This document shows, in pieces, positions 2,685-53,757 of a DNA stretch of 64,000 nt. Positions within the stretch are counted from its first letter, which is position 1. Each line of letters starts with the position of its first letter. The DNA comes from Gemmatimonadota bacterium (GTDB lineage Bacteria; Gemmatimonadota; Gemmatimonadetes; Gemmatimonadales; Gemmatimonadaceae): the NCBI GenBank assembly GCA_021324775.1, contig JAJPIM010000039.1:1-64000 (forward strand), written 5' to 3'. The position numbers were made by a program, and so were the translations under genes. Below the pieces are notes generated by a model, which was not told the origin of the DNA, searched no databases, and saw nothing but the letters and a program-made list of their open reading frames with translations.

Positions 2685-2704
2685 CAGTCAGATCCTGTTG
2701 GCGA

Positions 2705-3751: not shown

Positions 3752-3833
3752 ACGTCCCCGAGTCAGAGGTGAGTCACGCGGTCCCGCGCTGAATCGCGCC
3801 TTCGGGGACGAACCTACTCCGCGAATCTGACCG

Positions 3834-3926
3834 CACGATTACAAAAGACACCCGGCGGCGGCCGCCGCCGGATCGTGACACACCTGGGACCCGCCGGGCC
3901 TGGCCGGAGCGCGTCCTGTAATCGTG
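3834..3926. promoter_or_regulatory. 10-bp inverted repeat in divergent promoter region
   Basis: CACGATTACA (3834-3843) and its exact complement TGTAATCGTG (3917-3926) lie 83 bp apart between the divergent beta-propeller gene and the outer-membrane efflux gene. They are among the few AT-containing words in this GC-rich spacer. They could be operator half-sites or a looped operator; the nearby response regulator is a candidate binder. This is inference; only the repeat itself is seen. Confidence 0.35.
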
Positions 3927-3956
3927 GCGACAGCTTATCGCGCTACCGTTTGCGGT

Positions 3957-9717: not shown

Positions 9718-9790
9718 TGACGGCCGAGAGAGGAGCAGGGCAGAAACGAGAGAGGAGCAGGGCAGAAAGGAGAGAGGAGATAAAAGGCGT
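9718..9790 (+). repeat. Polypurine tract with a duplicated unit after the pump gene
   Basis: A purine-rich stretch directly after the stop contains the near-identical unit GAGAGGAGCAGGGCAGAAA twice, then GGAGAGAGGAGATAAAAGG. Similar tracts follow the stops at 26357 and 59393. No gene is seen in it. Confidence 0.6.
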
Positions 9791-9849
9791 AACACTCGGG
9801 TAACGTGGTCTGGCTGGTGCGACACAATGCAGTCGAGGAATCCATTTTC

Positions 9850-11436: not shown

Positions 11437-11471
11437 CGTGTGTGCCCGGGGGCATGGCAGGAGCGAACCCA

Positions 11472-11500
11472 TTGCGGGCTGATTTAGGAATACCTAATAT
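11472..11500 (+). promoter_or_regulatory. Sigma-70-like promoter overlapping a small palindrome
   Basis: TTGCGG (11472-11477), a 17-bp spacer and TAATAT (11495-11500) lie 8 bp before the porin ATG. The palindrome TTAGG-AATA-CCTAA (11484-11497) overlaps the -10 element, as an operator would. The AT-rich patch stands out from the surroundings. With so short a spacing the mRNA leader would be very short. Confidence 0.45.
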
Positions 11501-11508
11501 ATCGCACA

Positions 11509-13587: not shown

Positions 13588-13670
13588 CGCCGCGACAGTG
13601 GCGCCCCCGACACCTCGCCGGCATCGGGCCAACGTAGCGTCCGGCCGCGACGAGCTGTAACGTCGGAGGC

Positions 13671-14825
13671 ATGCCGCGGCCAACCCAGCACGAACTGCCC
13701 GATCCCGGAGATCGCCCGCCCGAGATCAACTGGCGGGTCGCGTTCGTGTTGTTCACGCTCGCCGGGCTGCTGCGGTTTCTCTACTTCTATCTCGACGATG
13801 TGACGCGCGGCTTCCCGGGTACGCTCGTTCGCCGTGCGCTCGAGGAATCCACGGGAGCGTACGCGGCATTGCTGCTGTTCCCGCTGATTGTGGTGGTGGA
13901 GCGGCGGTATCCGCTTTCGGCGGGGCGGTGGCGCCGAAGCTGGCCCGTGCACGCGGCCGCCTACGCCGTCTACACCGCTGGGCATACGACGCTGCTGGCG
14001 CTCAGCCGCGCCGCAATCTATCCGCTCATCGGACACGGCCCGTACGACTACGGGCGGATGCCGGTCCGTTATTTCATGGAGTCGGCCGAAGACGTCATCA
14101 CCTACGTCGTCCTGGCTGGCATCCTCACTTTCATGCGCGTGCAGCAGTACCTGCGCGATCGCGAAGTGCGGGCTGCGACGCTCGAACGCGATGCTGCGAA
14201 TGCGCGGCTGGAGGTGCTGAGCCTTCGGCTGCAGCCGCATTTCCTGTTCAACGCGCTCAACACGATCTCGTCCACCGTCTACGACGACCCGGTCGCCGCC
14301 GACGACCTGATCGGACGTCTCGGCGATTTGTTGCGGCGGGCGCTGCGGACGAGTGAGCGGCAGGAAGTGACGCTTGATGAAGAAATCGAGACCCTCCGAG
14401 CCTATCTCTCGTTCGTCGAGGCGCGGTTCGGGGACCGAGTCCACTGTACGCTCGATGCGGCGCCAGCGTGCGCAGCGATGGGGGTGCCGCCGCTCCTCCT
14501 GCAGCCGCTCGTCGAGAACGCCGTCGTGCACGGGGCAGCCGCCGAGTTCGGAAACACGGACATCATGATCCGGATCCGGTGTGATGGCGGAGATCTGGCA
14601 ATTCTCATCGAGAATACCGTGGTGGGCCCCTTACCAGACGCGTGGCGGGCGGGAACGGGTCTCGGGACGACGCGGGACCGGTTGCGGCTGTTGTACGGTG
14701 CGCGGGCCTCGCTGGACGCCATCGCGGCCGATGGCTCGTATCGGGTGACGGTGCGGCTGCCTGCCCGCGCGGTCCCCGCGATCGTGTCCGAGCCCGGTGC
14801 GGAACATGCGCGCGCTGATCGCTGA
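13671..14825 (+). CDS. LytS/YpdA-type sensor histidine kinase
   Basis: A 384-aa membrane kinase of the His_kinase (LytS/AlgZ) class. A good GGAGG ribosome binding site precedes the ATG. There are about four transmembrane segments in residues 20-150. The phospho-acceptor His190 lies in LRLQPHFLFNALNTISS, and the ATPase domain has LLLQPLVENAVVHG and GTGLGTTRDRLRLLYG. The 3' end overlaps the LytTR regulator gene, so the two are co-translated and form a pair. Confidence 0.92.
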   Translation: MPRPTQHELPDPGDRPPEINWRVAFVLFTLAGLLRFLYFYLDDVTRGFPGTLVRRALEESTGAYAALLLFPLIVVVERRYPLSAGRWRRSWPVHAAAYAVYTAGHTTLLALSRAAIYPLIGHGPYDYGRMPVRYFMESAEDVITYVVLAGILTFMRVQQYLRDREVRAATLERDAANARLEVLSLRLQPHFLFNALNTISSTVYDDPVAADDLIGRLGDLLRRALRTSERQEVTLDEEIETLRAYLSFVEARFGDRVHCTLDAAPACAAMGVPPLLLQPLVENAVVHGAAAEFGNTDIMIRIRCDGGDLAILIENTVVGPLPDAWRAGTGLGTTRDRLRLLYGARASLDAIAADGSYRVTVRLPARAVPAIVSEPGAEHARADR

Positions 14826-15567
14826 TGACGAGGCGCCGGCCCGCGCGAAGATCCGCCGCATGCTGGCGGCGGCGGGTGACGTCGAGATCATCGGTGAAGT
14901 GTCGACGGGGCGCGAGGCGATCGCCGCGATCAAGCGTACCGGCCCGGATATCGTTTTTCTCGACATCCAAATGCCCGGACTGGACGGGGTCGGGGTAGCT
15001 GAGGCGCTCGATCGCGACGGCGGCCCGTACGTCGTCTTCGTAAGTGCGCACGCCGACCACGCGATGCGTGCCTTTGAAGTCGGCGCGGTGGATTACCTCT
15101 TGAAGCCGTTCACCCCCGACCGGTTCGATCGCATGCTGGAGCGCGCGCGCGAGCGGATCCGGGGCGACAATGGGGCGGGTCCCCGAGGCGGAGGCGCGCA
15201 GCCACCGGCGGTACAGGGAGGGGGCGCCAAATATCTGCGCCGCATCCTCGTGATCGCGGAGGGCCGAGCGCTGTTTCTGCCGATCGAGCGGATCGATCGT
15301 GCAGAATCGGAGCGCAACTACGTGGTGCTGCACAGTGGTGCCAATCGTCACCGGCTGCGTACGACCATCGGGTCGTTGGCCGAACGGCTGGATCCCGCGC
15401 AGTTCCTGCGCGTTAACCGGTCCCAGATCATCCGGCTGGATGCCATTCGTGAGATGCACGAGTGGTCGCACGGCGATTTCCGCGTCGTGATGCAGGATGG
15501 GACGGAACTGAACTGGAGCCGGCGATACCGGGCGAGCGCGGCGGAGGAATTCGGTCTGGGCGGCTAG
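14806..15567 (+). CDS. LytTR-family response regulator
   Basis: Receiver domain at residues about 1-115 with Asp53 (DIVFLDIQMPGLDG) and the DYLLKPF lysine. After a Gly/Pro linker comes a LytTR DNA-binding domain (about 145-250; IERIDRAESERNYVVLHSG, RVNRSQIIRLDAI). LytTR proteins bind direct repeats upstream of their targets. ATG 14806 is preferred over GTG 14797 in the same frame; both lie inside the end of the kinase gene. Targets cannot be read from this sequence; the PQQ enzyme gene downstream is 115 bp away. Confidence 0.92.
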   Translation: MRALIADDEAPARAKIRRMLAAAGDVEIIGEVSTGREAIAAIKRTGPDIVFLDIQMPGLDGVGVAEALDRDGGPYVVFVSAHADHAMRAFEVGAVDYLLKPFTPDRFDRMLERARERIRGDNGAGPRGGGAQPPAVQGGGAKYLRRILVIAEGRALFLPIERIDRAESERNYVVLHSGANRHRLRTTIGSLAERLDPAQFLRVNRSQIIRLDAIREMHEWSHGDFRVVMQDGTELNWSRRYRASAAEEFGLGG

Positions 15568-15682
15568 CGCGTTCATCCTCGCCGAATCCCGTTGGTCCCG
15601 GTTGTGACCTGCTCGTCCCAGGCGGCTTCGCGGACACCGTCCGGACCCATAGCTTCGAGGCGACCCTCACCAGGACGCGTTC

Positions 15683-17671
15683 GTGGATCCAGTCCGGCTG
15701 CCTCTCGTTGCTCGTTCGCGCCTTCGTGGCGCGATGGGTTTGGTCAGTCTGTTCGTGCTGCCGGTGTGTGGTGCCGGCGCCCAAACCGGGTCCTCCGACG
15801 AGTGGGTCGCGTACGGGCACGACCAGTCCGGCAGCAAGTTCTCGCCGCTCGCGCAGATCACGCGCGGCAACGTCAATACCCTGGCCGTGGCGTGGACGTA
15901 CCGGACCGGCGAGCTAGGTGTTGCGACACAGCAACCTCCCAAGCTCGAGGCGAAGCCGCTCCTGGTGGACGGGACGCTGTATCTCTCCACGCCATTCGGC
16001 CGCGTGGTCGCACTCGATCCGGCGACCGGCGCGGCGCGGTGGACCTTTGACGCACACCTTGATCGGGGTGGCGACTGGGGAGACTTCGCCAACCGGGGTG
16101 TCTCGACGTGGCTCGACCCTGGTGCCGCCCGTGGCGCAGTGTGCCGGCGACGCATCTACCTCGGCACCATCGACGCGCGGATCATCGCGCTCGACGCGGT
16201 GACGGGTGCCGTGTGCCGAGGATTCGGCGACAGCGGGACAGTGAACCTGCGGCGGGGTTTGCACAACGTGCCGTACTATCCTGAGGAGTATGAACTGACA
16301 TCGCCGCCCGCAGTGGTGAACGGCGTGATCGTCGCCGGCTCCGGCGTGGCCGACAACAACCGCCTCAACGCCGCCAGCGGTGAAGTGCGTGCGTACGACG
16401 CGCGGACGGGCGCGCTCCGCTGGAGCTGGGATCCAATCCCGCGCGACTCCGCCGATCCGGCGTGGAGGACTTGGCACGGCCCGATGGCGCACATCACCGG
16501 TGCGGCGAACGCGTGGTCGGTGATCGCCGCAGACTCGGCGCGCGGCCTGGTGTTCGTCCCGACCACGAGTCCCAGTCCGGACTACTACGGCGGCGAGCGC
16601 ACCGGCGACAACCGGTATGCGAACTCGATCGTCGCGCTGCGAGTGTCGTCGGGCGCCGTGGTGTGGTCGTTCCAGACCGTGCATCACGATCTGTGGGATT
16701 ACGACAACGCGTCCCCGCCGGCGCTGGTGACCATCACGCACGACGGCAAGCGCGCCGACGTGGTGCTGCAGGCCACCAAGACCGGCCAACTCTTCGTGCT
16801 GGACCGGGATACGGGAAAGCCGGTCTTTCCCGTCGAAGAGCGGCCAGTGCCCGCGAGCCAGCTCTTCAGCGAGCACGCCTCGCCGACGCAGCCGTTCAAC
16901 ACGGTGATCCCGCCGCTCAGTCCCCAGGGGCTGACTCTCGACGACGTATGGGGGCCGACGCCCGAGATCCGCGAGGCGTGCCTCGCCATGGTGCGGCCCC
17001 TTCGTAACGAGGGGGTGTTCACGCCGCCCAGCCTGCAGGGGACCGTCTCGCGACCCTCCAACATCGGCGGCGCGCAGTGGGGCGGTGTGGCATTCGACCC
17101 GCAGCGAGAGATCGCCGTCGTGCCGGTCAACACGATCGCGGCCCGGGTGCAGCTCATCCCGCTCGACCAGATCGATACGGCCGAAGCGACGAAGAACTCT
17201 TCGCGCCTGGGGGATCAGTACACCCGGATGCACGGCACGCCATACGTGATGCGGCGCAACATGATCAAGACCTCGGACGGAGTCCCGTGCACGAAACCAC
17301 CGTGGGGCTTGCTCGTCGCGATCGATCTCAGGACCGGTGCGCGGGCGTGGAGCGTTCCGCTCGGCGATCCTACGACCCTGCTGCCGGAGCTAGGTGGACT
17401 GTCCGCGGCGCCGCTCGGCACGCCCAACCTCGGTGGTCCGATCGTCACGGCAGGAGGCCTGGTGTTCATCGGCGCGACGTTCGATCACGTCCTGCGGGCG
17501 TTCGACATCGAGACCGGGCGGCAGTTGTGGCAGGGACCGTTGCCGGGTGGCGCGCGTGCGACGCCGATGACGTATCAGGCGGCGGGGCGGCAATACGTCG
17601 TCATTTCCGTCGGCGGCAGCGAGGATTGGGGCAAAGGGGATTACCTCGTCGCGTTTGCGTTGCCAAGGTGA
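15683..17671 (+). CDS. PQQ-dependent dehydrogenase (membrane/periplasmic, beta-propeller)
   Basis: A 662-aa quinoprotein-like enzyme. The signal segment is GLVSLFVLPVCGAGAQ. An eight-bladed propeller carries tryptophan-docking repeats (LVVDGTLYLSTPFGRVVALDPATGAARWTF, IVALRVSSGAVVWSFQTVHHDLWDYDNASPP, LVAIDLRTGARAWSVPLG). HHDLWDYD is typical of membrane glucose/quinate-type dehydrogenases and related enzymes. No cytochrome c CXXCH motif is present, so electrons would pass to a separate acceptor. No PQQ biosynthesis genes are in the window. GTG 15683 or ATG 15734 could be the start. The substrate is undetermined. Confidence 0.88.
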   Translation: MDPVRLPLVARSRLRGAMGLVSLFVLPVCGAGAQTGSSDEWVAYGHDQSGSKFSPLAQITRGNVNTLAVAWTYRTGELGVATQQPPKLEAKPLLVDGTLYLSTPFGRVVALDPATGAARWTFDAHLDRGGDWGDFANRGVSTWLDPGAARGAVCRRRIYLGTIDARIIALDAVTGAVCRGFGDSGTVNLRRGLHNVPYYPEEYELTSPPAVVNGVIVAGSGVADNNRLNAASGEVRAYDARTGALRWSWDPIPRDSADPAWRTWHGPMAHITGAANAWSVIAADSARGLVFVPTTSPSPDYYGGERTGDNRYANSIVALRVSSGAVVWSFQTVHHDLWDYDNASPPALVTITHDGKRADVVLQATKTGQLFVLDRDTGKPVFPVEERPVPASQLFSEHASPTQPFNTVIPPLSPQGLTLDDVWGPTPEIREACLAMVRPLRNEGVFTPPSLQGTVSRPSNIGGAQWGGVAFDPQREIAVVPVNTIAARVQLIPLDQIDTAEATKNSSRLGDQYTRMHGTPYVMRRNMIKTSDGVPCTKPPWGLLVAIDLRTGARAWSVPLGDPTTLLPELGGLSAAPLGTPNLGGPIVTAGGLVFIGATFDHVLRAFDIETGRQLWQGPLPGGARATPMTYQAAGRQYVVISVGGSEDWGKGDYLVAFALPR

Positions 17672-17784
17672 GGGTGTGCCGAAGCACCGGCAATCATGCC
17701 AAGGCGGAAGGGTACCAGGGACGAAATGGTGTGATGCTGATGGTTCTGATGCTGGACCAACCGCGTTGGCTGCCGCATCCGTCT

Positions 17785-17808
17785 GGGGGCCGTTCACGAA
17801 CGGCCCCC
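17785..17808. repeat. Hairpin of the GCATCCGT family, copy 1
   Basis: GGGGGCCGTTC and GAACGGCCCCC form a perfect 11-bp stem with a 2-nt loop, preceded by CCGCATCCGTC at 17773-17783. Related sites with the same GCATCCGT leader lie at 39725 and 47180. Confidence 0.65.
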
Positions 17809-17904
17809 GCTGCGTGGGCCGATGCAATGTGGCGCGCCCGTGGAGTGTCGGCTGACGTCGCGGGGGGCATGACGGGATGGCGACGGTGCGACGATTGCAT
17901 CGAT

Positions 17905-18055
17905 GGGCCGGTCGCGACCGGCCCCTACCAGGGGCGAATGGTGCGGCAGCACCGGCCAGCGTTTGCGGGAACGAAGGTACGGCAGGACCGGCCAGCGTTT
18001 GCAGGGACGAATTGTGCGGCAGGACCGCAGGGTGCGCGGCAGGACCGGCGGCTAT
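17905..18055. repeat. Palindromic repeat plus 36/37-bp tandem units
   Basis: The perfect palindrome GGGCCGGTCGCGACCGGCCC occupies 17905-17924 and is followed by CTACCAGGGGCGAAT. Two tandem units come next (17941-17976 and 17977-18013), sharing CGGCAGSACCGGCCAGCGTTTGC and ending in GRACGAA, then decayed partial units to about 18050. This fills most of the gene-free stretch 17672-18059. No gene is seen there. Confidence 0.75.
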
Positions 18056-18059
18056 TGCG

Positions 18060-19370
18060 TCAGGATGCTTGTCTGATCCAGCGGCCTAGCTCGCGGAGGC
18101 TTGGGCGCTTGCCGTACATGAGGAGGCCCACGCGGTAGAGGCGCGCGGCGATCCAGACCGAGACACCGCAGCCGATGGCGACGCCCAGCAGCGCCGAGAC
18201 GACCTCGTACCATGAAACCTGCGTCACGCTCATCCGGACCGGCATGATGATCGGTGCGGTGAACGGGAACCATGAGGCGCCACGGGCCAGTGTGCTGTTC
18301 GGATCGAGAAGCGCGGGGACTACGAGCACGACCGCGAGGACGACGAGCATTGTCACCGGCAGTGCGGCCTGTGTGGCGTCCTCCTGGTTGGTGACGATCG
18401 CCCCCATCCCCGCGAAGAGCGCGGCGTAGCACAGGAAGCCCAGCACCCAGAACGCGATCAGCGCGAGGATCGAGAGGCCGCTGATCGTGGGAAACGGGAT
18501 CGCTGGAATGTCGAGGTTGAAGAGATGCAGTAGCGGGCCGCGAGTCTTGTAGACCACCGCCGACATCACGACCCACAGCAGGACCTGCGTCACCGCGACG
18601 CTGCTGACGCCGAACACCTTGCCGGCCAACAGCGTGTCGGGTGACACACTCGACACCACGACCTCGGCGACCCGGGATGATTTTTCGTCGACGACGGCCC
18701 GGAGGATCACGTTCCCGTAAAGCACGATCATCGTGTACAGCGTGAACGCGACCAGATAGGCGAAGATCGTGCTGAGCTCCGCGGACCCTCCTCGTCCCTG
18801 ATCGGTGATCCGGTCGGCATTGATCTCGCTTCGCACGTCGGTGAGCGCGCGGATGCGTTGCGGATCGAGTCCGACCGCCTCGAGGCGTTGCGCGAGGATG
18901 CCCCGCCGGACGGCCGCGGTGAGCCGGTTCATGTCCTGCACGCTCGAGGCGTTGCGGCCCGCGTAGTACACCTCAGCGCCGGCCATCGCCGCGCTGTCGA
19001 TGACGAGGTATCCGGTCCACTGATGGTTGACGATCTCCGCGGTCGCGGCATCCTGCGCCGACGTGAGGCCCGCAGACACCACGGGCCGGACTACGGCCGA
19101 CAGCGTGTCGCCGAGGAGGCCGCCATTCAGCACTTTGGCGACGCGGGCGCCGAGGCCCGTGTTCGTCGCATCGAGGATGACGATATGGGAGACATCGGCA
19201 GACGGGTGCGCCTTGCGGGTCAGGATCTGCGGAACCGTGATCACCGACCCGAAGAAGACCGGGCCCGCGACCGTGGCGAAGATGTACCAGCGGGACTGGA
19301 TCCGCTCGAGATACTCGCGGCGGAAGACCGCCCAGAACTTCTGCATTGGGCCAGCGGGGCGCCTACTCAT
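18060..19370 (-). CDS. ABC-2 type permease (NatB-like)
   Basis: A 436-aa membrane component of an ABC exporter. One N-terminal transmembrane helix (RWYIFATVAGPVFFGSVITV) is followed by an extracytoplasmic domain of about 170 residues and then five to six helices. The motif DEKSSRVAEVVVSSVSPDTLLAGKVFGVSSVA is typical of NatB/ABC-2 permeases. The start overlaps the 3' end of the ATPase gene by 8 bp, so the pair is coupled. The substrate is unknown; NatAB in Bacillus exports sodium. Confidence 0.88.
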   Translation of the reverse strand: MSRRPAGPMQKFWAVFRREYLERIQSRWYIFATVAGPVFFGSVITVPQILTRKAHPSADVSHIVILDATNTGLGARVAKVLNGGLLGDTLSAVVRPVVSAGLTSAQDAATAEIVNHQWTGYLVIDSAAMAGAEVYYAGRNASSVQDMNRLTAAVRRGILAQRLEAVGLDPQRIRALTDVRSEINADRITDQGRGGSAELSTIFAYLVAFTLYTMIVLYGNVILRAVVDEKSSRVAEVVVSSVSPDTLLAGKVFGVSSVAVTQVLLWVVMSAVVYKTRGPLLHLFNLDIPAIPFPTISGLSILALIAFWVLGFLCYAALFAGMGAIVTNQEDATQAALPVTMLVVLAVVLVVPALLDPNSTLARGASWFPFTAPIIMPVRMSVTQVSWYEVVSALLGVAIGCGVSVWIAARLYRVGLLMYGKRPSLRELGRWIRQAS

Positions 19371-44630: not shown

Positions 44631-45635
44631 CTAGCGCTTGTGCGGCGTACCCGACCGGAGCTCGATGTCCCCGCTGAACGTAACGACCGTGATCCGGGCG
44701 CCGCCTTTGCCGAGTGTGGCGTCGAGGTGCTGGGCGGCGGGGCCGGATTCGCCCCGGGGCTGGATCGTGATCGGGAAGTCGGACGTGATCTCACCGCTGA
44801 AGGAGTCGAGGGACACCGTGGCGCCGGCATCGGCGGGGAGGTCGATGTGGACATCGCCGGAGTGGGCGTGCAGGTCGTAGGTCCCTGAGGGGTCGAGCGT
44901 CCCGCCGTAGGTCAGGTCGCCGCTCACGCTTTCCATGTGGACGTTCCGGCAGGTGGCCCGGGTGAGGTAGCCGTGTCCGCTGACCGACGTGAACGTGACG
45001 TCTCCGGTAACCGCATCGGCCTCGGCGTCGCCGCTGACCGTGCGCATGTGGAGGTCGCCGCGGACATTGTGGACCGTCATGTTGCCCGAGAGGGATTCCA
45101 GCGTGGCGTTGTGTGCGACATCATCGACGCGGACGTCGCCGCTGACCGAGCGGGCCTCGATCTCGCCGCGGGTGCCCTGGACCTCGAGGTCGCCGGAAAT
45201 GCTGTGGAGGATCACGCGGGTGCCGGCGGGGACCGTGACCGTGTACTCCACATCGTCGTCGCCGTCGTCATCGTCGTTATCGCCGCGCATGTGCCGATGG
45301 CCGCGTGAGTCGAGGACGAGACGGCCGGCCTCGTGCTCGAAATGGACGGGCACGTGGTCGCTCGTCACGTGCACCCGCGCTTCGGGGCGAGTCCAGGCGG
45401 TGACCGTGATCTTGCCGGATATGAGCGAGAGGTCCGCGACACCGCCCGTGGCGGCGAAGGCGATCGTCGTGTCGATCGTCGTGGTCTCGTCCGCATCCAT
45501 GCCGCGGGAGTGTCTGCCGCGGTTCCTGCCGTGCTCGTCGTCCTGCGCGCCGGCACGCGGCGCGATCGCGGCGAGCACCAGAGCGGCGGCGGTCAGAGCT
45601 GGCAGCGTGAAACGCGACATCATGTAGCGCGACAT
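44631..45635 (-). CDS. Exported DUF4097 beta-repeat protein
   Basis: A 334-aa protein with a signal peptide (FTLPALTAAALVLAAIAPRAGAQ), an Asp/Glu/His-rich segment and a repetitive beta-strand solenoid. The SVSGDV/LSGNM/TVSGDA/SVSGHG unit recurs every 18-25 residues, as in DUF4097 proteins (LiaX-like adhesin fold). It lies 28 nt downstream of the anti-sigma gene, so it belongs to the same unit. Such proteins often sense or respond to envelope stress. The target here is unknown. Confidence 0.85.
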   Translation of the reverse strand: MSRYMMSRFTLPALTAAALVLAAIAPRAGAQDDEHGRNRGRHSRGMDADETTTIDTTIAFAATGGVADLSLISGKITVTAWTRPEARVHVTSDHVPVHFEHEAGRLVLDSRGHRHMRGDNDDDDGDDDVEYTVTVPAGTRVILHSISGDLEVQGTRGEIEARSVSGDVRVDDVAHNATLESLSGNMTVHNVRGDLHMRTVSGDAEADAVTGDVTFTSVSGHGYLTRATCRNVHMESVSGDLTYGGTLDPSGTYDLHAHSGDVHIDLPADAGATVSLDSFSGEITSDFPITIQPRGESGPAAQHLDATLGKGGARITVVTFSGDIELRSGTPHKR

Positions 45636-45663
45636 CTTCGGAATCCGTGCTGAGAGTGGTCGG

Positions 45664-46374
45664 TCAAGTGCGAGCGGGGAGCATTGCGACCGTGCGCAGG
45701 AGCTCGAGCTTGGTATTCAGGGACGCGTCCAACTGACTGGCGAGGAACCCATTGGCGGGGTCGCGGGCGAGTGCGGCGCGGCTTTCGGCGATTGCAGTAT
45801 CGATTACGCGGAGGTTCTTCTCGATAATCGCGACCGTTTTGGGGTCGAGCTGGTCGCGCCGTGCGTCGAGGATCTGGCGCATGGCCGAGATCTGCTGGTC
45901 GTAGATGAACTCCGACGTGGGGGCGGCGGCGGGGGTATTGGAGACAGTGGAGAGCCCGGTGCGCGGCGTGGCAGCCGGAGCGGCGGGCGAGCGGGATTGC
46001 GCGGGGGGGTTGCTCCACTGGTGCGTGGCGAGGAGCGTGACGCTGGCGGTGGCGATGATCAGGACTGCGGCGCGGGCGAGTGGCGCGCCGTACCACCGCT
46101 GGCTCAGCCAGCGGGTGGCGAGCGGCCGTCTGGGAGCGATTTCCTGTGGGATCGTCTGGATGCGCGCTTCGATCCCGGCCCAGAGATCGCGGGGCGGGTG
46201 GAGCGCGGGCAGAGCGGCGGCGCGGGCGCGGATGCGTTCCATGTCGCGGACCAGCGCGCGGCAGGATTCGCAGGAGACGATGTGTGCGCGTGCGGCGCCG
46301 TCATCGGCGAGCGTGCCGTCGAGGTAGTCCGGGAGCGTGGCTTCGAACGCCGCGCAGTCACTGGTTGTCGTCAT
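45664..46374 (-). CDS. Anti-sigma factor with zf-HC2 domain
   Basis: A 236-aa membrane anti-sigma factor. The N-terminal zinc-binding domain has HIVSCESC (His-X3-Cys-X2-Cys, about 32-39). One transmembrane helix (AAVLIIATASVTLLAT, about 123-140) leads to an extracytoplasmic C-terminal half with helix-rich DARRDQLDPKTVAIIEKNLRVIDTAIAESRAAL. Its ATG overlaps the sigma gene stop (ATGA), the standard pairing. It would hold the ECF sigma factor inactive until an envelope signal. Confidence 0.9.
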   Translation of the reverse strand: MTTTSDCAAFEATLPDYLDGTLADDGAARAHIVSCESCRALVRDMERIRARAAALPALHPPRDLWAGIEARIQTIPQEIAPRRPLATRWLSQRWYGAPLARAAVLIIATASVTLLATHQWSNPPAQSRSPAAPAATPRTGLSTVSNTPAAAPTSEFIYDQQISAMRQILDARRDQLDPKTVAIIEKNLRVIDTAIAESRAALARDPANGFLASQLDASLNTKLELLRTVAMLPART

Positions 46375-47000
46375 CGGTCGAGCGCCTCTCGTAAGAGCAT
46401 GCGGGCCCGGTGGAGCTGAGCCTTGCTACCGCCTGAAGTGATTCCCAGCATCGTGCCGATTTCCTCGTGGCGATACCCTTCGACATCGTGGAGCACGAAG
46501 ACCCGTTTCGCACCGGGCGGCAGCGACGCGATCGCCTCCTCGATGTCCATCCATTCCCCCGGCGCGAAGTGCGAGGGCGCCATGAGCGTCGCGCCCACAC
46601 TGCCGGCTTCCTCATCGCCTTCGTCTTCCGTCATGCTGATCGTCCGCTTCCTGCGTCCGTCACCCTTGTGCGCATTGAGCACGACATTCACAGCGAGCCG
46701 GTGGAGCCACGTGGCGAAGCTGCTTTCGCCTCGGAACTGCCCCATCTTCGTCCACGCGCGTACGAACGTGTCCTGCGTGAGCTCCTCGGCCTGTGCCGCG
46801 TCCGAGGTCATGCGGACGCAGACGGAGAACACCCGGTCGCAGTGAGCCCGGTACACCCGTTCGAAGGCCGATCGGTCACCGGCGGCCGCGAGCGCGACGT
46901 CGGCTGCGAGTCCGGGGGCATCGGTGCCGCTGGTCTCGTTGGCCGTCGCCTGCGTGCGTTCCGTGGATCGTGAATTGGCGTCAGACGGCGCCACGGCCAT
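46371..47000 (-). CDS. ECF RNA polymerase sigma factor
   Basis: A 209-aa extracytoplasmic-function sigma factor. Sigma2 region: AFERVYRAHCDRVFSVCVRMTSDAAQAEELTQDTFVRAWTKM, then SSFATWLHRLAVNVVLNAHK. Sigma4 region (about 145-205): ASLPPGAKRVFVLHDVEGYRHEEIGTMLGITSGGSKAQLHRAR, with Gly-Ser in the usual Thr-Val position. The N-terminal ~35 residues are unstructured. It heads a sigma, anti-sigma, DUF4097 unit. Confidence 0.94.
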   Translation of the reverse strand: MAVAPSDANSRSTERTQATANETSGTDAPGLAADVALAAAGDRSAFERVYRAHCDRVFSVCVRMTSDAAQAEELTQDTFVRAWTKMGQFRGESSFATWLHRLAVNVVLNAHKGDGRRKRTISMTEDEGDEEAGSVGATLMAPSHFAPGEWMDIEEAIASLPPGAKRVFVLHDVEGYRHEEIGTMLGITSGGSKAQLHRARMLLREALDR

Positions 47001-47310: not shown

Positions 47311-47988
47311 CTAGGCGATCGGCGTCAGCGAGTCGAGGAGGGCCGGGAGGCTGCTGATGTGTTCCAGTAGATGGGCCGGGTGCGCGGATTCCAGGACGGT
47401 GCGGGGATAGAATCCCCAGACGGCGCCGATCGTGATCACACCGGCGGCGTTGCCCGAGCGGATATCGTGCGGGGAGTCGCCGACGAAAACGGCGCCCGCG
47501 ACGGGTGCGTGTAGCTGCTCGAGCGCGCAGCGCACCGGCTCGGGGTCGGGTTTGTGGCGGGTTGTTGATTCCTGTCCGATGATTGCGGCGAAGTATGGGG
47601 CCAGTCCGACGTATTCGATCGTGCGGACGGCCATCTCGTTGGACTTCGACGTGACGACGGCCATCGGGTGGCCGCGCTGGCTCAGCGTGCGCACGGTGTC
47701 TACGACGCCGGAGTAGGCGTGGGTGAGGCGATCGAGGTTGGCGCGCTGGTAGCCGCGGTAGGATTTTTCCAGTGCGCTGACATCTGCCTCGTCTACCGCA
47801 TAGGGACGGAGCTGGGACGAGAGGGGAGTGCCGATTCCGGAGATCCACTCCTCGGTGGTGGGGATGCGTCCCGTCCGTCCCTTGAACGCATGGCGCACCG
47901 ACTCCAATAGCAGCGTGATCGTGTCGACGAGTGTGCCGTCGAGATCGAAGAGCACGGCGCGGCGCGGGGAGTCGGGCATCGCGCTCAC
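47311..47988 (-). CDS. HAD-family phosphatase (phosphoglycolate-phosphatase-like)
   Basis: A 225-aa haloacid dehalogenase hydrolase. Motif I is LFDLDGTLVDT (nucleophile Asp about 15), motif II is AVVTSK, motif III is KPDPEPV and motif IV is FVGDSPHD. The helical cap after motif I is of the Gph/PpaX kind. Such enzymes dephosphorylate phosphoglycolate, pyrophosphate or nucleotides. Its ATG overlaps the stop of the helicase gene by 4 nt, which ties its expression to the methyltransferase/helicase operon. Whether it works with them or is a passenger cannot be told. Confidence 0.9.
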   Translation of the reverse strand: MSAMPDSPRRAVLFDLDGTLVDTITLLLESVRHAFKGRTGRIPTTEEWISGIGTPLSSQLRPYAVDEADVSALEKSYRGYQRANLDRLTHAYSGVVDTVRTLSQRGHPMAVVTSKSNEMAVRTIEYVGLAPYFAAIIGQESTTRHKPDPEPVRCALEQLHAPVAGAVFVGDSPHDIRSGNAAGVITIGAVWGFYPRTVLESAHPAHLLEHISSLPALLDSLTPIA

Positions 47989-50327
47989 AAACTAACGCGC
48001 ACACCGTCCCGCGCTATGTTGTCGCGCTGAAAGAGGATCAGTGCGGAAACGACGATGCCCGCAATGTCGTCGTTGGTGCCGGTGCCGGAGTGGAGGCAGG
48101 CCGCGCGATGGGCGCCGGTCGTATCTCGCGGACCGTAGCTGTCTCCGAACGCCGCGACTGCGAGCAACCAGGCGCGGTCGGACATCTGGCCGTCGGCGAG
48201 CTCGCCCAGCACCCACTCCGCGCCGGCGCCGCAGCGCGTGATGGCGGCGTGGCGGGCGCGGCGGATGAGTGACGAGAGCCGCGGCCGCAGGTGCGGCGGT
48301 GCCTGGCGTGCGATGCTGGCGATGCGGGCGAGCACGCGCCGGCGGGCGCTCGTTCCGGCTACGAGCAGTCCCGCATCATCCGCGGCCCGCCGGCGTCCCG
48401 ACCATTCGCTGATCGCGACGATCGCCGCCCGGCACGCCGACTCATCTAAAGGTGCGGGCCTGCCCTCTGCCCGCGACACCGCATCCGCGACCGCTTCGGG
48501 CGAATCGGTGACTGTGTCGCTCGCGGAGGCCAGGAGCACGGGCCGTCCGTCGCGCACGCATGCAGCCAGCCATCCCGCCGAATCCGAACACACCGCCGCG
48601 CATATGATGCCCGGCTGTCCGCGTACGGTATGCAGGCTGTCGCCGCTCTCCAGCCGCCAGCGCCGTACCACAGCGCGGGCCGTAGCAATGTGTTCCGGCG
48701 GGCTCGGCGCGGTGGGGACGTCGGCGGGGTCTGCCGGCGACACGGCCCCGGGCAGAATCGAGCCTGACACACCAATCGCGCGGCCGGCAGCGTCGAGTTT
48801 CGCGCGCAGGCGCCGCTCGACGCCGAGTAGTGTCTCAGCCGACACCGGTGGCGCAAAGGCGTATACGTGCACACGACGGTGCGACGATCCGAGTCTGGCG
48901 ACGCGACCCACGCGCTGCGCGAGCCGTGCGGGGGTCCATGGCATGTCGAGGTGGACGACGACGGATGCCTCCTGCAGGTTGACTCCCTCACTCAGCAGGT
49001 CAGTCGTGAGCAACAGATCGATTCGCTCGGCGACGTGCGCCGCCGCGGTTCCGGTTCTCGATGCGGCTGGTGCGAACTGGGCCATCACCGCGGCGCGGGT
49101 CATCCGTCCGTTCGCGATCACGGCTCCTCCGGCGCTCAGCACGCACGCGCGTTCGGACGGCGCGAGATATCGGTACAGGGCGCGCACCGTGTCCTCGAAC
49201 GCGGCGAATGCCACGACCTTGGTGCCGGGGTGTGCGCGCATCACCCGCCGGATGTGGTCCGCGCGCTCGGCGTCCGCGTCGGGAGTGGCATTGAGCCGGA
49301 CGAGCAGAGCGCGAACCGCGGCCTCGTGGGCCCGGACCGATTCGAGCAGGGCCGCGGCGTCGGACGATGGCGGGACCAGAAGTTCCGGAAAGGCGAGTTG
49401 GACGGCGCCTTCGCCAAGACACCAGGCTCGCAGGTCGCGGTAGGAGGGATGGCGGCCAGCCGAGAGGGCGGACGCCATCGCGGTTGCGCGTGCCAGCCGC
49501 CGCCGCAGCGCGCCGCGTAGCGCGCCGGTGCTCGACGCCCATTGGCGGATGAGCGCGAAGCTGACGAGGGCCGCGGCGTTGCCGCCGTCTCGCGGGGGCA
49601 CCGCGTCCGGAAGGGCCACCAGCGCGTCCAGCGTCTCGTGGTCGTCACGCAACGCGAGCCGGTGGGGTCCATCCACGGCGGGGACTTGCAATGCGGTACC
49701 GGCGCCGGCGTCCGGTGGCGCGACCATCGACGGCTTGCGGCGGACGACGTATCGTGCGCGCTCGTCGGCGGTGAGCGCTCGCGCGCGGGCACCGAGGAAC
49801 AACTCGAGCACCGCCACGAGATCCTCCGTCCGGTTGTGGACGGGTGTCGCCGATAACAGCAGGATGCGGATGCCGGCGGCGAGGCGGGCGAGTGCGCGAT
49901 ACCGGCGGGTCAGCGGGTTTCGGAAGTGATGGGCTTCATCGACGACGATGAGATCCCATCCGCCCTCGATTCTCGGCGCGGAGTCGCCGCGACTGAGAGC
50001 TTCGGCCGACCACATCGTCACGCGCACCCCCGCGCGGGCCGCGGCTTGCAACCACATGCCACGCAGACCCATCGGCGCGATGACCAGGGGCCGGCGGGCT
50101 TCGCTTGCGAGCGCGAGCGCAACGAACGTCTTCCCGAGTCCCACCTCATCGGCCAGCAGCGCACCGCCGAAGCCGGTGATCAGAGTGCGAATCTCGCGCA
50201 CCGCAGCCATCTGGTGCGGCTGCAGCGACACGGACCCCAACTGAGCCTGCGTGTCGTCCGCATGTTCGAGCCAGCAGCCGGCGACAGCCGCCCGAGCGGC
50301 CGCGGCATCTACTACCTGCAGCGTCAT
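47985..50327 (-). CDS. SNF2/DEAD-type helicase of a methyltransferase operon
   Basis: A 780-aa superfamily 2 helicase or translocase. It has motif I LLADEVGLGKT (about 57-67), motif II VDEAHHFRNP (about 128-132), motif III LLSATPVHN, motif V TDLLSEGVNLQEASVVVHLD and motif VI RLAQRVGRVARLG (about 470). A C-terminal region of about 200 residues (SADDAGLLVAGTSARRRVLARIASIAR) I do not recognise. The plan is like RapA and the DrmD helicase of DISARM. ATG 50327 overlaps the upstream gene stop; the open frame before it is discarded. Translocation along DNA in defence is inferred. Confidence 0.88.
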   Translation of the reverse strand: MTLQVVDAAAARAAVAGCWLEHADDTQAQLGSVSLQPHQMAAVREIRTLITGFGGALLADEVGLGKTFVALALASEARRPLVIAPMGLRGMWLQAAARAGVRVTMWSAEALSRGDSAPRIEGGWDLIVVDEAHHFRNPLTRRYRALARLAAGIRILLLSATPVHNRTEDLVAVLELFLGARARALTADERARYVVRRKPSMVAPPDAGAGTALQVPAVDGPHRLALRDDHETLDALVALPDAVPPRDGGNAAALVSFALIRQWASSTGALRGALRRRLARATAMASALSAGRHPSYRDLRAWCLGEGAVQLAFPELLVPPSSDAAALLESVRAHEAAVRALLVRLNATPDADAERADHIRRVMRAHPGTKVVAFAAFEDTVRALYRYLAPSERACVLSAGGAVIANGRMTRAAVMAQFAPAASRTGTAAAHVAERIDLLLTTDLLSEGVNLQEASVVVHLDMPWTPARLAQRVGRVARLGSSHRRVHVYAFAPPVSAETLLGVERRLRAKLDAAGRAIGVSGSILPGAVSPADPADVPTAPSPPEHIATARAVVRRWRLESGDSLHTVRGQPGIICAAVCSDSAGWLAACVRDGRPVLLASASDTVTDSPEAVADAVSRAEGRPAPLDESACRAAIVAISEWSGRRRAADDAGLLVAGTSARRRVLARIASIARQAPPHLRPRLSSLIRRARHAAITRCGAGAEWVLGELADGQMSDRAWLLAVAAFGDSYGPRDTTGAHRAACLHSGTGTNDDIAGIVVSALILFQRDNIARDGVRVSL

Positions 50328-51388
50328 CCCTCGGGCCACGACACCAGGGGCGCCAACGCCGTGGACGAAAGACCATATGCAGCGGCCACGTTCGCGGACA
50401 ACTCGTCGCTGTCTGGCACTTCTCCGGCGGCGGCGCGCTCGCCGACAGGTCCGAGGACGGCGCGCGCACGGGCCCAGTCGGTGGGGATCGGCAGGAGACT
50501 CACCGTCCAGGCCAGGTATCGGTGGAATCCGCCGCGCGCGGGCTCGGCCAACACGTTGAGCCAACTTGCAGCGACCGTACTATTGATGATGGCGCACAGC
50601 GCGTGCGCATCCATCTCGCCCGGCGCTCGCACCGCGTAGCAACTGTTCAGGGGGACAGTGTTGTCGCCCGCCGGGAGAACCGCCGCCCGCGGCATCCGGC
50701 CGATGTCCGCCCACACGACCCGAGGTTTTTTCGCGGCGGCGCTGTCCGTCCGGAACAGTGCCCACCAGGGTCCGCGTCCGCGCGTGTCACTTCGAGCAGC
50801 CAGCCGGTGGCGCCATGGCGCCAGCCACCGTGCGGCCCCGGGGGGAAGAGCGACCATCGGTGCGGCAGCGCCAGCGCCGTTCTCCTCGTGCGTCCACAGG
50901 ATCATCTCCGGCCCTGCTGCCACGCTCTGGCGTTGGCCAATGGGGTGAACCGCCGGATCGGGCGCCAGTTGCGCCGATGCAGACTGGCGCGTGACGGTCC
51001 AGCGGCCGACGGTCCGGCCGCGCACCACGGGCCGCAGCATGTGTCGCTCGACCAATCCCGTACGAGTGGGAGCACCAGGGCGAGCGCTGTGAACGCGGAC
51101 GAACTCGGCATCCGGTGGGTCGCTCGTATCGAGCGAGACCAGGAACGCTTCATTGCATCCGCATTTCACGCCCAAGAGCGGCGACCCAAAGACGCTTTCG
51201 GACAATGGAGCGCCGGCTGCCGCGAGGGCATCGAAGGCCTGGCGGGTCTCCGGAGGGACGAGGAGCCAAGGGCTCCCGGCTGACGCGTCGAGTGCGAGAG
51301 CCTCGGGCGCCAATTTCCACCGCCGGACGCCGCTGCGAGTGTGGACCGCGGCCGCGATCATCCCCTGCGAGCTGGCCCGTCCAATCAT
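50324..51388 (-). CDS. Separate target-recognition subunit of the methyltransferase
   Basis: A 354-aa protein that looks like the C-terminal specificity part of Eco57I/TaqI-like adenine methyltransferases. GVKCGCNEAFLV matches their G-x-x-x-G-x-N-x-A-F element, and HALCAIINSTVAASWLNVLA resembles the end-domain segment where the enzyme names its last strands. It lies in frame order after the methyltransferase gene, overlapping it by 4 nt (ATGA). It therefore probably represents a split of one ancestral polypeptide. It carries no catalytic motif of its own. Confidence 0.7.
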   Translation of the reverse strand: MIGRASSQGMIAAAVHTRSGVRRWKLAPEALALDASAGSPWLLVPPETRQAFDALAAAGAPLSESVFGSPLLGVKCGCNEAFLVSLDTSDPPDAEFVRVHSARPGAPTRTGLVERHMLRPVVRGRTVGRWTVTRQSASAQLAPDPAVHPIGQRQSVAAGPEMILWTHEENGAGAAAPMVALPPGAARWLAPWRHRLAARSDTRGRGPWWALFRTDSAAAKKPRVVWADIGRMPRAAVLPAGDNTVPLNSCYAVRAPGEMDAHALCAIINSTVAASWLNVLAEPARGGFHRYLAWTVSLLPIPTDWARARAVLGPVGERAAAGEVPDSDELSANVAAAYGLSSTALAPLVSWPEG

Positions 51389-53757
51389 TTGGATGCCCTC
51401 GATCCGGCGACTGCAGCAGCGCCATCATGTCGTGGCACTGCTTTGCGCGCCACGAGCAGCGACGGATAGACGGCCGCGTCAAATGCCGACCGCGCGGCCG
51501 ACCAATCCTCGAGTGCGTGGATGGACGTCTCGCCGGCGAGCAATCGGCGGACGCCGCCACCAGCCAGGCAGCGCCAGAGCTTTGTTGGAAGCAGCAGCGC
51601 GACCACGCCGCCTCGGCACGTCAGCGAGACGGCGCGCTCGACGAACAGGGCGGCGAGATCAACCTGCGCGCCGAACGTGGTCGCCCCGTGACGTGAACGG
51701 CCGCCGGGGATCCACGCGGCGTCGCGGTTGACGCTGAATTCTCGCGAGAGGCGAAGGCGCTCCGTGAGTGGAACGGCGTGGGGCCGAACCCACGGCGGGT
51801 TGCCGAGTACGACGTCGAACCCGCCCGCAGCTTCGGCGTCGGCAAACTGTGCCGCAAACATGAACGGCAGGGCGGCCCCGTCGCGGAGGGCTCGCAGGCG
51901 TGCACGTAACACACGCGCGCGGCGCCGCAACTCGGCTCGCCGTGTGCGATCAGACGGCCCGCGCTGCGCCGGATCTCCGAACAGGTCGCGTCCTCGGGCG
52001 GCGGTTACCGCATCGCATCGCGCCCTGACCACACGCGCCAGATCCCGCTCCACCGCTTCGATCGCCCGCGCCCGCTCCGCGCGCTGGAGTGTGCCGAGCA
52101 ACTCATGCTTGCGCGCGCCAGCCGAGCGGGCGTATCGCTCGCGGAGCGTCGCCAGCCGGTGGGCTGCGCGACTCGTGATGGCGGCGCCATCGGCTCTGGC
52201 CTGAAGAAGACGGTCGCAAAAGGCGCCACCGGCCAGCGCGTCGCCGACGCGCACGTTGTGATCGAGGTTGGGCAGCGGCGACACGTCGGAGGGATCGCAC
52301 TCCGCCGTCTCGATCACCACGGACAGCCAGAGGCGCAACTCACAGAGCCAGACCGCCGTCGGGTTGACGTCGACGCCGAAGATCGAGTGCGTCAGCACCG
52401 CGCGCCGGCGATCGCTCACGGTCCGCTGGTCTCCGGCGGCCGCAGCGATCGCTGCCAGGGCTTCCAGGGCGTAGACGAGGAACGCTCCGGACCCGCAGGC
52501 GGGATCGAGCACTCTCATCTGAGCGATGCGCAGACGCACCGCGTCGCGCACCGAGGGATGGAGCGTCGCGTCAGGCACACCACGAAGCACCGCGCCAGCG
52601 TCGGCGGCCGAGAGGCCGGGCGATGTGAGGGCCTGTACCAACGCCTCTCCTGCGACGCGCTCGACCATCGGCTGCGGCGTGTAGAAGGCCCCGGTCACCC
52701 GGCGTTCGCGTGGTTCCATGAGCGATTCGAAGGCTTTGCCCAGCATCTCCGGGTCGACGGCTGCCTCGGACCACGTGCGACCGTCCTCGCGCGCGGTGAA
52801 CCGGTATCGCTCGAGTACCTCACTGAAGAGCGCACCCAGCGCCTCATCGGTGAATTCGGCGCGGGCCCGCTGTTCCAACACGGCCGGCGCGAACAGCCCG
52901 CCGTTCAGAAATGGAATGCGGCCGAACGCTCGTGCTTTTGGCGCACGGCGGTGTGTGGGTGTGTTCAACGTCCCGAAGAACAGCGGCCGCAGGACGCGCG
53001 CGTGGTATCGGCCGGCTCCGGCCACGCATTCAGCGTAGGTGCGCGCCAGAAACCCCCGGTCGCTGTCGAGCCAACCTTTGGCTTCCAGAAAGGCGAGGAA
53101 CAGCAAGCGAGACGTGCATACCAATGCGAGCGAACGCCGGTGTCCATCCGTGATGCGGCGGGCGGCCGGCGGCACGATCATCGTGTGTGCCAGATGCTCG
53201 ACGGCCCGGTCGAGGGCGCGGTAGAAACGCTGCGTCAGCGAATCACGTCCGAGCACGGCTAACCACCGAGCATGTGTCAGGGTGTCATCAGGTCCAGCCG
53301 CGGCGGCGAGTGCGCAGAGGGTTTCCGCGTCGCTGTCGACGATGTCGTCACGATCCAGCGCGAGAGCTGCGACACGTGGCGGGTGGCGATCGGCCGACCA
53401 CGAGACCAGCGCGAGCGGACGACCGGTGTCGCGGCGCGCCGCGATGCAGAGCCATCCGACGTGTGGTGTGCGACGAGCCATGCGGGCGGCGATCCGTGGC
53501 AGCATCTCGCGGAATGAGCCGCAGCCCGCGGTTCGGCCGATGTCGATCAGCAATGCGCGCAGACAGCCGGGACCACGTGCGACTCGCACGTCTACGGCTG
53601 ATACGTCTCCACCGAGAACGCTCAGGCCGAGGCGGTCACGGTCTGGTGGATCGAGTGGGTGTGGCGGGCCGTCGCATCCGCATGCGGCGGCGAGGCGGGC
53701 TAGGGCATCAGGATCGTCCGCCGCCAAGAGCGTGGCGGCGGCCCGGAGTGTCAGCAT
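51385..53757 (-). CDS. Eco57I-like N6-adenine DNA methyltransferase
   Basis: A 790-aa DNA methyltransferase. The N-terminal ~300 residues are of unassigned type, including LLFLAFLEAKGWLD, which is seen in type IIG/PglX-like enzymes. Then come FYTPQPMVERVAGEAL, motif I VLDPACGSGAFLVYAL (about 413-425, SAM binding) and catalytic motif IV VVLGNPPWVRP (about 648-656). Post-motif segments ERAVSLTCRGGVVALLLPTKLWR follow. I see no PD-(D/E)XK nuclease triad in the N-terminal part. It heads the operon with the recognition, helicase and HAD genes. Its 5' end is repeated in decayed form at 57528. Confidence 0.87.
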   Translation of the reverse strand: MLTLRAAATLLAADDPDALARLAAACGCDGPPHPLDPPDRDRLGLSVLGGDVSAVDVRVARGPGCLRALLIDIGRTAGCGSFREMLPRIAARMARRTPHVGWLCIAARRDTGRPLALVSWSADRHPPRVAALALDRDDIVDSDAETLCALAAAAGPDDTLTHARWLAVLGRDSLTQRFYRALDRAVEHLAHTMIVPPAARRITDGHRRSLALVCTSRLLFLAFLEAKGWLDSDRGFLARTYAECVAGAGRYHARVLRPLFFGTLNTPTHRRAPKARAFGRIPFLNGGLFAPAVLEQRARAEFTDEALGALFSEVLERYRFTAREDGRTWSEAAVDPEMLGKAFESLMEPRERRVTGAFYTPQPMVERVAGEALVQALTSPGLSAADAGAVLRGVPDATLHPSVRDAVRLRIAQMRVLDPACGSGAFLVYALEALAAIAAAAGDQRTVSDRRRAVLTHSIFGVDVNPTAVWLCELRLWLSVVIETAECDPSDVSPLPNLDHNVRVGDALAGGAFCDRLLQARADGAAITSRAAHRLATLRERYARSAGARKHELLGTLQRAERARAIEAVERDLARVVRARCDAVTAARGRDLFGDPAQRGPSDRTRRAELRRRARVLRARLRALRDGAALPFMFAAQFADAEAAGGFDVVLGNPPWVRPHAVPLTERLRLSREFSVNRDAAWIPGGRSRHGATTFGAQVDLAALFVERAVSLTCRGGVVALLLPTKLWRCLAGGGVRRLLAGETSIHALEDWSAARSAFDAAVYPSLLVARKAVPRHDGAAAVAGSRASK

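What the first reader, a model, noticed from the sequence alone, without database searches (positions are those of the whole stretch)
47311..53757. Four-gene coupled operon: Eco57I-like methyltransferase, recognition subunit, SNF2 helicase, HAD phosphatase
Seen: four minus-strand genes in a row, each joined by a 4-nt stop/start overlap (51388/51385, 50327/50324, 47988/47985). Known: adenine methyltransferase plus SNF2 helicase occurs in DISARM (DrmMI/DrmD) and partly in BREX (PglX), but the other DISARM genes (drmA-C) or BREX genes (pglZ, brxC) are absent here. No nuclease motif is seen. Inference: a restriction-like or modification-plus-remodelling defence system, with a HAD phosphatase as an unusual coupled member that could act on a nucleotide signal. 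This is my first candidate for an undescribed system.
Basis: partly seen in the sequence, partly recalled or inferred. Interest (0 to 1): 0.8.

Follow-up and report, generated by a model that had tools for sequence, protein, structure and literature searches.

The report
Core DNA methyltransferase with SNF2 motor
Nearly every member of a large order of soil bacteria carries, as an inherited core trait, an adenine DNA-methylating enzyme paired with a DNA-remodelling motor and no recognisable DNA-cutting enzyme, which looks more like a built-in system for marking the chromosome than a mobile antiviral weapon.

Summary
The four coupled minus-strand genes are real, but their reading changes.

Genes 1 and 2 are one protein, a gamma-class (Eco57I/CamA/PglX-like) adenine DNA methyltransferase with its target-recognition domain. 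In this genus it is split by an NTGA overlap; in other intact relatives it is one ORF of about 1,000-1,250 aa.

The methyltransferase is found in 136 of 149 order-wide relatives and the SNF2 helicase in 133. They are adjacent in 121 of 132, and no genome has the helicase alone. Trees and distances follow rpoB: a vertically inherited core trait of Gemmatimonadales, not a patchy defence island.

Catalytic motifs and the recognition domain are conserved under purifying selection. No nuclease motif and no third DISARM, BREX, ARMADA or Hma component was found nearby.

The HAD gene (PpaX/Gph-like) is a looser neighbour and survives where the pair is lost.

Best structural match is CamA, the conserved orphan methyltransferase of C. 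difficile. I infer a core chromosomal methylation system whose SNF2 motor clears proteins for, or responds to, the methyltransferase. A nuclease-less, vertically kept defence pair is the main rival. The pair itself is a known defence kernel; its solitary, order-wide core form is new.

The parts
51385..53757 (-). Adenine DNA methyltransferase, N-terminal ~165-aa domain of unknown fold + helical spacer + gamma-class catalytic domain (motif I DPACGSGAF, motif IV GNPPWVR); 790 aa
   Evidence: ortholog in 136/149 relatives; AF2 model of the fused relative matches CamA, M.BseCI, PglX, MmeI
50324..51388 (-). Target-recognition domain of the same methyltransferase, encoded as a separate 354-aa gene in this genus (4-nt ATGA overlap with the gene before it)
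   Evidence: aligns to the C-terminal ~300 aa of the single-ORF relatives; TaqI_C weak match; NTGA overlap also in the two congeners G001 and G002
47985..50327 (-). SNF2-family (RapA/BrxHII/DrmD/DpdE-like) helicase, 780 aa; Walker A, DEAH, (S/T)ATP and QRxGR motifs conserved
   Evidence: 133/149 relatives; AF2/Foldseek SNF2 remodeller motor
47311..47988 (-). HAD-IA phosphatase, PpaX/phosphoglycolate phosphatase-like; loosely linked neighbour, not an obligate member
51385..51388 (-). ATGA stop/start overlap that splits methyltransferase and recognition domain
50324..50327 (-). ATGA stop/start overlap, recognition domain to helicase
47985..47988 (-). GTGA stop/start overlap, helicase to HAD

Best explanation
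The module is a core chromosomal adenine-methylation system of Gemmatimonadales. A CamA-like gamma-class methyltransferase, split in this genus into catalytic and recognition polypeptides, methylates adenine in a short, probably asymmetric target. A dedicated SNF2 motor works with it. SHOWN: presence across the order at the detection rate of a universal gene, vertical inheritance, pairing, intact catalytic motifs, conserved recognition domain under purifying selection, no nuclease motif found. INFERRED: the motor is recruited to the methyltransferase or its sites and translocates on double-stranded DNA to clear bound proteins, so that sites are methylated after replication, or so that the methylation state is read; in logic this resembles the DDM1/LSH remodeller with a DNA methyltransferase. 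The HAD phosphatase is an operon neighbour with a metabolic role.
For: Methyltransferase in 136/149 order-wide genomes, 64/67 genera; helicase in 133/149. rpoB searched in 78 of these assemblies was found in only 66, a rate not different by Fisher test, p = 0.18. Adjacent and co-directional in 121/132. All 13 genomes without methyltransferase also lack the helicase, none has the helicase alone. Pairwise identity tracks rpoB (Spearman 0.86 and 0.87); methyltransferase and rpoB trees share 35 of 56 splits against 0.23 by chance, and families f1, f2, f3, f9 are each one clade in the methyltransferase tree. All or none by family in a sister order: f9 6/8 with the misses 65% and 83% complete, f7 0/35. 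Recognition domain/catalytic identity ratio within the family 0.66-1.10, 48 near-invariant recognition columns; dN/dS 0.12-0.35 there. Best fold match CamA, Z 25.8 over 491 residues. Flanks are mostly housekeeping genes. No plasmid or phage record covers 80% of the query; the best hits cover about half or less at about 30% identity.
Against: No direct evidence of in vivo methylation by this enzyme or of any physiological role. The nearest helicase families named by the libraries are mostly defence proteins plus RapA. The pair is dispensable: lost in some lineages, more often in small genomes (4/13 against 8/136 at 2.6 Mb or less, p = 0.012). G018 kept the methyltransferase but no helicase was found, so the motor is not strictly needed. 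Hexamer statistics gave no target signature.
Confidence: 0.47

Rival explanations
1. A nuclease-less, two-component defence system kept vertically: the methyltransferase marks self at asymmetric sites and the SNF2 motor acts on unmarked DNA (blocking its replication or transcription), as a stripped-down kernel of ARMADA/DISARM class 1/type-3 BREX/Hma.
For: The same two proteins (PglX-like methyltransferase and BrxHII/RapA-like SNF2 helicase) are shared by ARMADA and DISARM class I and occur with a DUF499 ATPase in the BREX-related/Hma systems. PADLOC best models are type IIG, DrmMI, BrxHI, DrmD, DpdE. Helicase evolves faster than the methyltransferase (37% against 50% identity within families). 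Dispensable in some lineages.
Against: Near-universal vertical distribution, no recognition-domain swapping, dN/dS well below 1, no nuclease or third component found, mostly housekeeping neighbours.
Confidence: 0.33
2. Methylation-linked transcription or repair service: the RapA-like motor acts on stalled RNA polymerase or repair intermediates near methylated sites, with the phosphatase salvaging phosphoglycolate or pyrophosphate.
For: RapA is the best solved relative by sequence; HAD resembles PpaX and phosphoglycolate phosphatase. From general knowledge, gph lies in the E. coli dam operon.
Against: HAD is not obligately linked; no other repair genes were seen to recur nearby; sequence relation to RapA is generic.
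Confidence: 0.1
3. One reading: a four-gene defence system in which the HAD phosphatase handles a nucleotide signal.
For: 4-nt coupling of all four genes in the window and, for the HAD, adjacency within 1 kb downstream of the helicase in 53 of 91 co-contig cases.
Against: HAD often elsewhere and present without the pair in 7 of 13 genomes; no cyclase or sensor gene nearby; HAD matches metabolic phosphatases; in family f9 two HADs overlap an amidohydrolase gene.
Confidence: 0.04
4. A decayed type IIG/IIL restriction-modification enzyme that lost its nuclease, or a chance gene coupling.
For: Type IIG profile is the best PADLOC match (125 bits); an N-terminal domain precedes the spacer where IIG enzymes carry the nuclease.
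Against: Conserved order-wide with purifying selection and no helicase without methyltransferase; decay or chance would not last so long.
Confidence: 0.05

Closest known systems
CamA, orphan CAAAAA methyltransferase of Clostridioides difficile
   Same: Gamma-class adenine methyltransferase, best structural match (Z 25.8, 491 aligned residues); no paired nuclease; universal in its taxon (PMC8187626)
   Different: CamA is about 577 aa with no N-terminal extension of this kind, no helicase partner is described in the passages read, and it is restricted mostly to one species; this one is order-wide with an SNF2 partner
ARMADA (ArmA/ArmB) and DISARM class 1 (DrmD/DrmMI)
   Same: PglX-like methyltransferase plus BrxHII/RapA-like SNF2 helicase encoded together (PMC12458937)
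   Different: No YprA-like/DrmA helicase, DrmB, DrmC or GajB-like gene in the flanks examined; gene order methyltransferase then helicase; vertical core inheritance
Hma / DUF499-centred BREX-related systems and type-3 BREX
   Same: Methyltransferase + SNF2 helicase core (PMC12839542)
   Different: No DUF499/BrxC ATPase or PglZ nearby; no active helicase-nuclease fusion found
Type IIG/IIL enzymes (MmeI) and type ISP (LlaBIII/LlaGI)
   Same: Spacer-methyltransferase-recognition-domain architecture; ISP also couples it to a helicase motor (fold matches Z 18-20)
   Different: No recognisable nuclease; motor is a separate protein rather than fused
DDM1/LSH remodellers with DNA methyltransferases (eukaryotes)
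   Same: An SNF2 motor that serves DNA methylation (analogy only, from general knowledge; DDM1 is among the SNF2 matches)
   Different: No homology claimed for the pairing; different methyltransferases; function here untested

Membership tests
Core orphan adenine methyltransferase (CamA/CcrM/Dam type) | Universally conserved in its taxon and vertically inherited | tested here: met
   136/149 genomes; rpoB-like detection rate; trees congruent
Core orphan adenine methyltransferase (CamA/CcrM/Dam type) | No cognate restriction nuclease | tested here: met
   no nuclease family in the N-terminal part, helicase C-terminal part or neighbours; the rest of the genome was not searched for nucleases
Core orphan adenine methyltransferase (CamA/CcrM/Dam type) | Active adenine methylation of a defined motif with a cellular (non-defence) role | not testable with these tools
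   catalytic motifs conserved; the Gemmatirosa kalamazoonensis methylome contains ATGCAC, RGATCY and CCAGN7TCA but assignment is not proven
Type IIG/IIL restriction-modification | Conserved PD-(D/E)XK catalytic residues in the N-terminal domain | tested here: not met
   no conserved (D/E)xK pattern in 59 orthologs; no relevant Pfam or PDB sequence match to the N-terminal 165 aa
Type IIG/IIL restriction-modification | Nuclease-like fold of the N-terminal domain | tested here: inconclusive
   residues 1-163 lie outside nearly all structural alignments and were barely tested
DISARM class 1 | drmA, drmB, drmC next to drmD and drmMI | tested here: not met
   ten flanking genes of the window without PADLOC match; helicase 114 bits against a DrmD cut-off of 610
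ARMADA | YprA-like helicase in the operon | tested here: inconclusive
   no YprA-type (DrmA) match in the window flanks or in ten flanking proteins of relatives; no ARMADA-specific model held, whole genome not searched
BREX | pglZ and brxC next to pglX | tested here: not met
   no match in flanks; methyltransferase 49 bits against a BREX-2 PglX cut-off of 400
Hma / DUF499 BREX-related | DUF499 ATPase next to methyltransferase and SNF2 helicase | tested here: not met
   no DUF499 protein in the window flanks
Type ISP | Nuclease, helicase, methyltransferase and recognition domain in one polypeptide | tested here: not met
   separate genes, no nuclease recognised

The most novel reading that the evidence does not exclude
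A bacterial counterpart of the remodeller-assisted DNA methylation of eukaryotes (DDM1/LSH with DNA methyltransferase): a dedicated SNF2 remodeller that serves a core, non-defence DNA methyltransferase and thereby shapes the methylation landscape of a whole bacterial order.
Probability: 0.33. Interest if true: 0.85.

Novelty: new variant of a known kind. Interest (0 to 1): 0.6.

Why it matters
Conserved orphan methyltransferases (Dam, CcrM, CamA) set replication timing, cell cycle or development. None of these that I know of has an SNF2 motor as a dedicated partner. Here the protein pair otherwise known from multi-gene defence systems has become, or always was, a vertically inherited core trait of an abundant and poorly understood soil order. 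It offers cultured organisms in which to ask whether the methyltransferase-SNF2 kernel of ARMADA, DISARM and BREX has a chromosomal role of its own, and whether bacteria use remodellers for DNA methylation.

Tried and rejected
Four-gene system: rejected, since gene 2 is a split domain and the HAD is loosely tied. Hidden nuclease in the methyltransferase N-terminus: no relevant Pfam or PDB sequence match and no conserved (D/E)xK, but the fold of residues 1-163 was not tested alone. Hidden nuclease in the helicase C-terminus: no Pfam match, one irrelevant weak PDB match, low-confidence model for residues 522-658. Assigning ATGCAC by elimination in Gemmatirosa kalamazoonensis (G018; chromosome 5,311,527 bp against 5,312 kb reported): family searches found only an HsdM-type and the core methyltransferase, yet three motifs exist, so one enzyme was missed and either ATGCAC or RGATCY could belong here; ATGCAC has the asymmetric form usual for CamA/PglX/MmeI-like enzymes. 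Hexamer depletion as a footprint: ATGCAC unremarkable; CAAGAG depleted (0.43 in family f1) but also in genomes without the gene (0.68-0.69), so probably a codon effect. A first rpoB extraction took wrong ORFs and was redone. Paper searches found no description of this pair in Gemmatimonadota.

Full report
OBSERVATION. The four ORFs and the three 4-nt overlaps are present exactly as described. Pfam gives Eco57I methylase for gene 1, a weak TaqI_C-like recognition domain for gene 2, SNF2/Helicase_C for gene 3 and HAD_2 for gene 4. The window is the start of contig 14 of a 4.19-Mb, 98%-complete assembly; relatives in named collections are Gemmatimonadota.

GENES 1 AND 2 ARE ONE PROTEIN. In the other relatives with an intact locus the methyltransferase is a single ORF of about 1,000-1,250 aa whose C-terminal ~300 aa align with gene 2; a few broken ORFs coincide with contig ends, one in-frame TGA (L013) and the G015 locus. 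In the window genus (G000, G001, G002) the protein is split; NTGA overlaps (ATGA, GTGA, ATGA) occur at the junction in the three species, so translation is probably coupled. The 'recognition subunit' is therefore a genus-level fission of a recognition domain.

DISTRIBUTION. Of 149 relatives across the order, 136 have the methyltransferase (64 of 67 genera) and 133 the helicase (63 of 67). As a yardstick, rpoB searched in 78 of these assemblies was found in 66, a rate not different from that of the methyltransferase (p = 0.18). The pair is adjacent and co-directional in 121 of 132 genomes with both; of the other 11, ten have the two genes on different contigs or strands and one has a 12.6-kb gap. 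All 13 genomes without methyltransferase lack the helicase, and no genome has the helicase alone; gene adjacency in incomplete assemblies inflates the nominal p (3e-16). G018, complete to 100%, kept the methyltransferase without a detectable helicase. In a sister order the gene is all or none by family: family f9 6 of 8 (misses are 65% and 83% complete), family f7 0 of 35. In f9 the pair again overlaps by 4 nt. Some f4 genomes carry it too.

VERTICAL INHERITANCE. For 59 genomes, pairwise identity of the methyltransferase and the helicase tracks rpoB (Spearman 0.86 and 0.87). Methyltransferase and rpoB trees share 35 of 56 splits (shuffled labels: mean 0.23, maximum 2), and families f1, f2, f3 and f9 are single clades in the methyltransferase tree; of 32 strongly supported methyltransferase splits only 4 are contradicted by strong rpoB splits. 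No plasmid or phage record holds a close copy: the best hits cover about half of the query or less at about 30% identity. By contrast, other methyltransferase families are patchy in the same genomes.

FUNCTIONAL STATE. Motif I (DPxxGSGAF) and motif IV (NPPW) are conserved in the 59 methyltransferases, with rare single substitutions, and Walker A, DEAH and QRxGR in the helicases. The recognition domain is nearly as conserved as the catalytic domain (49% against 52-59% identity within the family), its identity ratio to the catalytic domain never falls below 0.66, and 48 of 352 columns are at least 97% conserved. dN/dS is 0.12-0.31 for the catalytic part, 0.12-0.35 for the recognition part and 0.18-0.44 for the helicase (dS is near saturation in the more distant pairs). 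There is no sign of the recognition-domain swapping expected in an arms race; no positive control of a swapping family was run.

STRUCTURE. The AlphaFold2 model of a fused relative (L034, pLDDT 85.6) matches CamA best (Z 25.8 over 491 residues), then M.BseCI, PglX/BrxX, M.TaqI, type ISP enzymes and MmeI. The first ~163 residues are left largely unmatched; they hold no conserved (D/E)xK pattern and match nothing relevant in Pfam or the PDB by sequence, but their fold was not tested alone. The helicase model (pLDDT 71) is an SNF2 remodeller-type motor with a poorly predicted C-terminal part.

HAD. It lies within 1 kb downstream of the helicase in 53 of 91 co-contig cases and within 3.5 kb of either gene in 78 (67 downstream of the helicase, 11 upstream of the methyltransferase), always on the same strand. 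In 12 it is 3.5-30 kb away, and the upstream position marks one clade. It occurs in 7 of 13 genomes without the pair. It resembles PpaX and phosphoglycolate phosphatase. In f9, two of the HADs examined overlap an amidohydrolase gene. It is a recurrent neighbour, not an obligate part.

METHYLATION LEAD. Gemmatirosa kalamazoonensis, which matches G018 by replicon number and chromosome length, methylates adenine in RGATCY, ATGCAC and CCAGN7TCA at more than 99% of sites (PMC3974934). An HsdM-type enzyme in the same genome suits CCAGN7TCA. The core methyltransferase could make ATGCAC (asymmetric, as is usual for this architecture) or RGATCY; elimination is incomplete because one enzyme was not found.

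COMPARISON. The pair of a PglX-like methyltransferase and a BrxHII/RapA-like SNF2 helicase is a known kernel of ARMADA and DISARM class 1 (PMC12458937) and, with a DUF499 ATPase, of the Hma/BREX-related systems (PMC12839542). Their third components are missing from the flanks examined here, and the proteins score far below the equivalog cut-offs of DrmD, DpdE and PglX. In distribution and structure the methyltransferase works like CamA. I therefore call it a new variant of a known kind: a solitary, order-wide methyltransferase-SNF2 pair without a recognisable nuclease.

MECHANISM. Most likely the methyltransferase marks the chromosome at a short asymmetric target and the motor clears or remodels DNA-bound proteins for it, or reads its state. 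The strong rival is a nuclease-less defence kept by descent. Conservation and selection tip me to the first; no experiment separates them yet.

Noticed in passing
window 44631-47000 (-): ECF sigma factor (46371-47000), a probable anti-sigma gene (45664-46374) and DUF4097 protein (44631-45635) downstream of the HAD; homologs of this set recur in about 20-33 of 80 methyltransferase/helicase neighbourhoods.
   Followed up: partly
L059:4982-10109 and L057:4588-10160: Methyltransferase-then-helicase pairs outside named Gemmatimonadota (an uncultured bacterium and a 'Deltaproteobacteria' assembly), 494 and 411 bits to the family profile; the pair may be core in other phyla too.
   Followed up: no
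L046-L055 (Poribacteria, Armatimonadetes): Helicase-then-methyltransferase neighbourhoods whose helicase has an N-terminal stretch that looks phospholipase-D-like (HAK...GSSNFT), probably DISARM- or BREX-related relatives.
   Followed up: no
L234 (G015) 989-18075: About 12 kb lies between methyltransferase and helicase, and the methyltransferase C-terminus is truncated: a possible natural disruption.
   Followed up: no
L217 (G018, probably Gemmatirosa kalamazoonensis): Methyltransferase of 1,251 aa kept, no helicase found in the genome and no HAD in the region: a natural helicase-minus genome with a published methylome.
   Followed up: partly
L221-L224 (family f9): Helicases carry an extra N-terminal region of about 170 aa (tested in L221: no Pfam match); in L221 and L222 an amidohydrolase gene overlaps the HAD start by 4 nt.
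   Followed up: partly
fetched f1 loci, about 1.1 Mb: Hexamer CAAGAG/CTCTTG strongly under-represented (0.43 of expectation) against 0.68-0.69 in genomes without the gene; likely a codon effect, unexplained in part.
   Followed up: partly
G000 contigs C27, C36, C37: The window genome has a second Eco57I-type methyltransferase frame (C27, 943 aa) and D12-type adenine methyltransferase frames (C36, C37).
   Followed up: no
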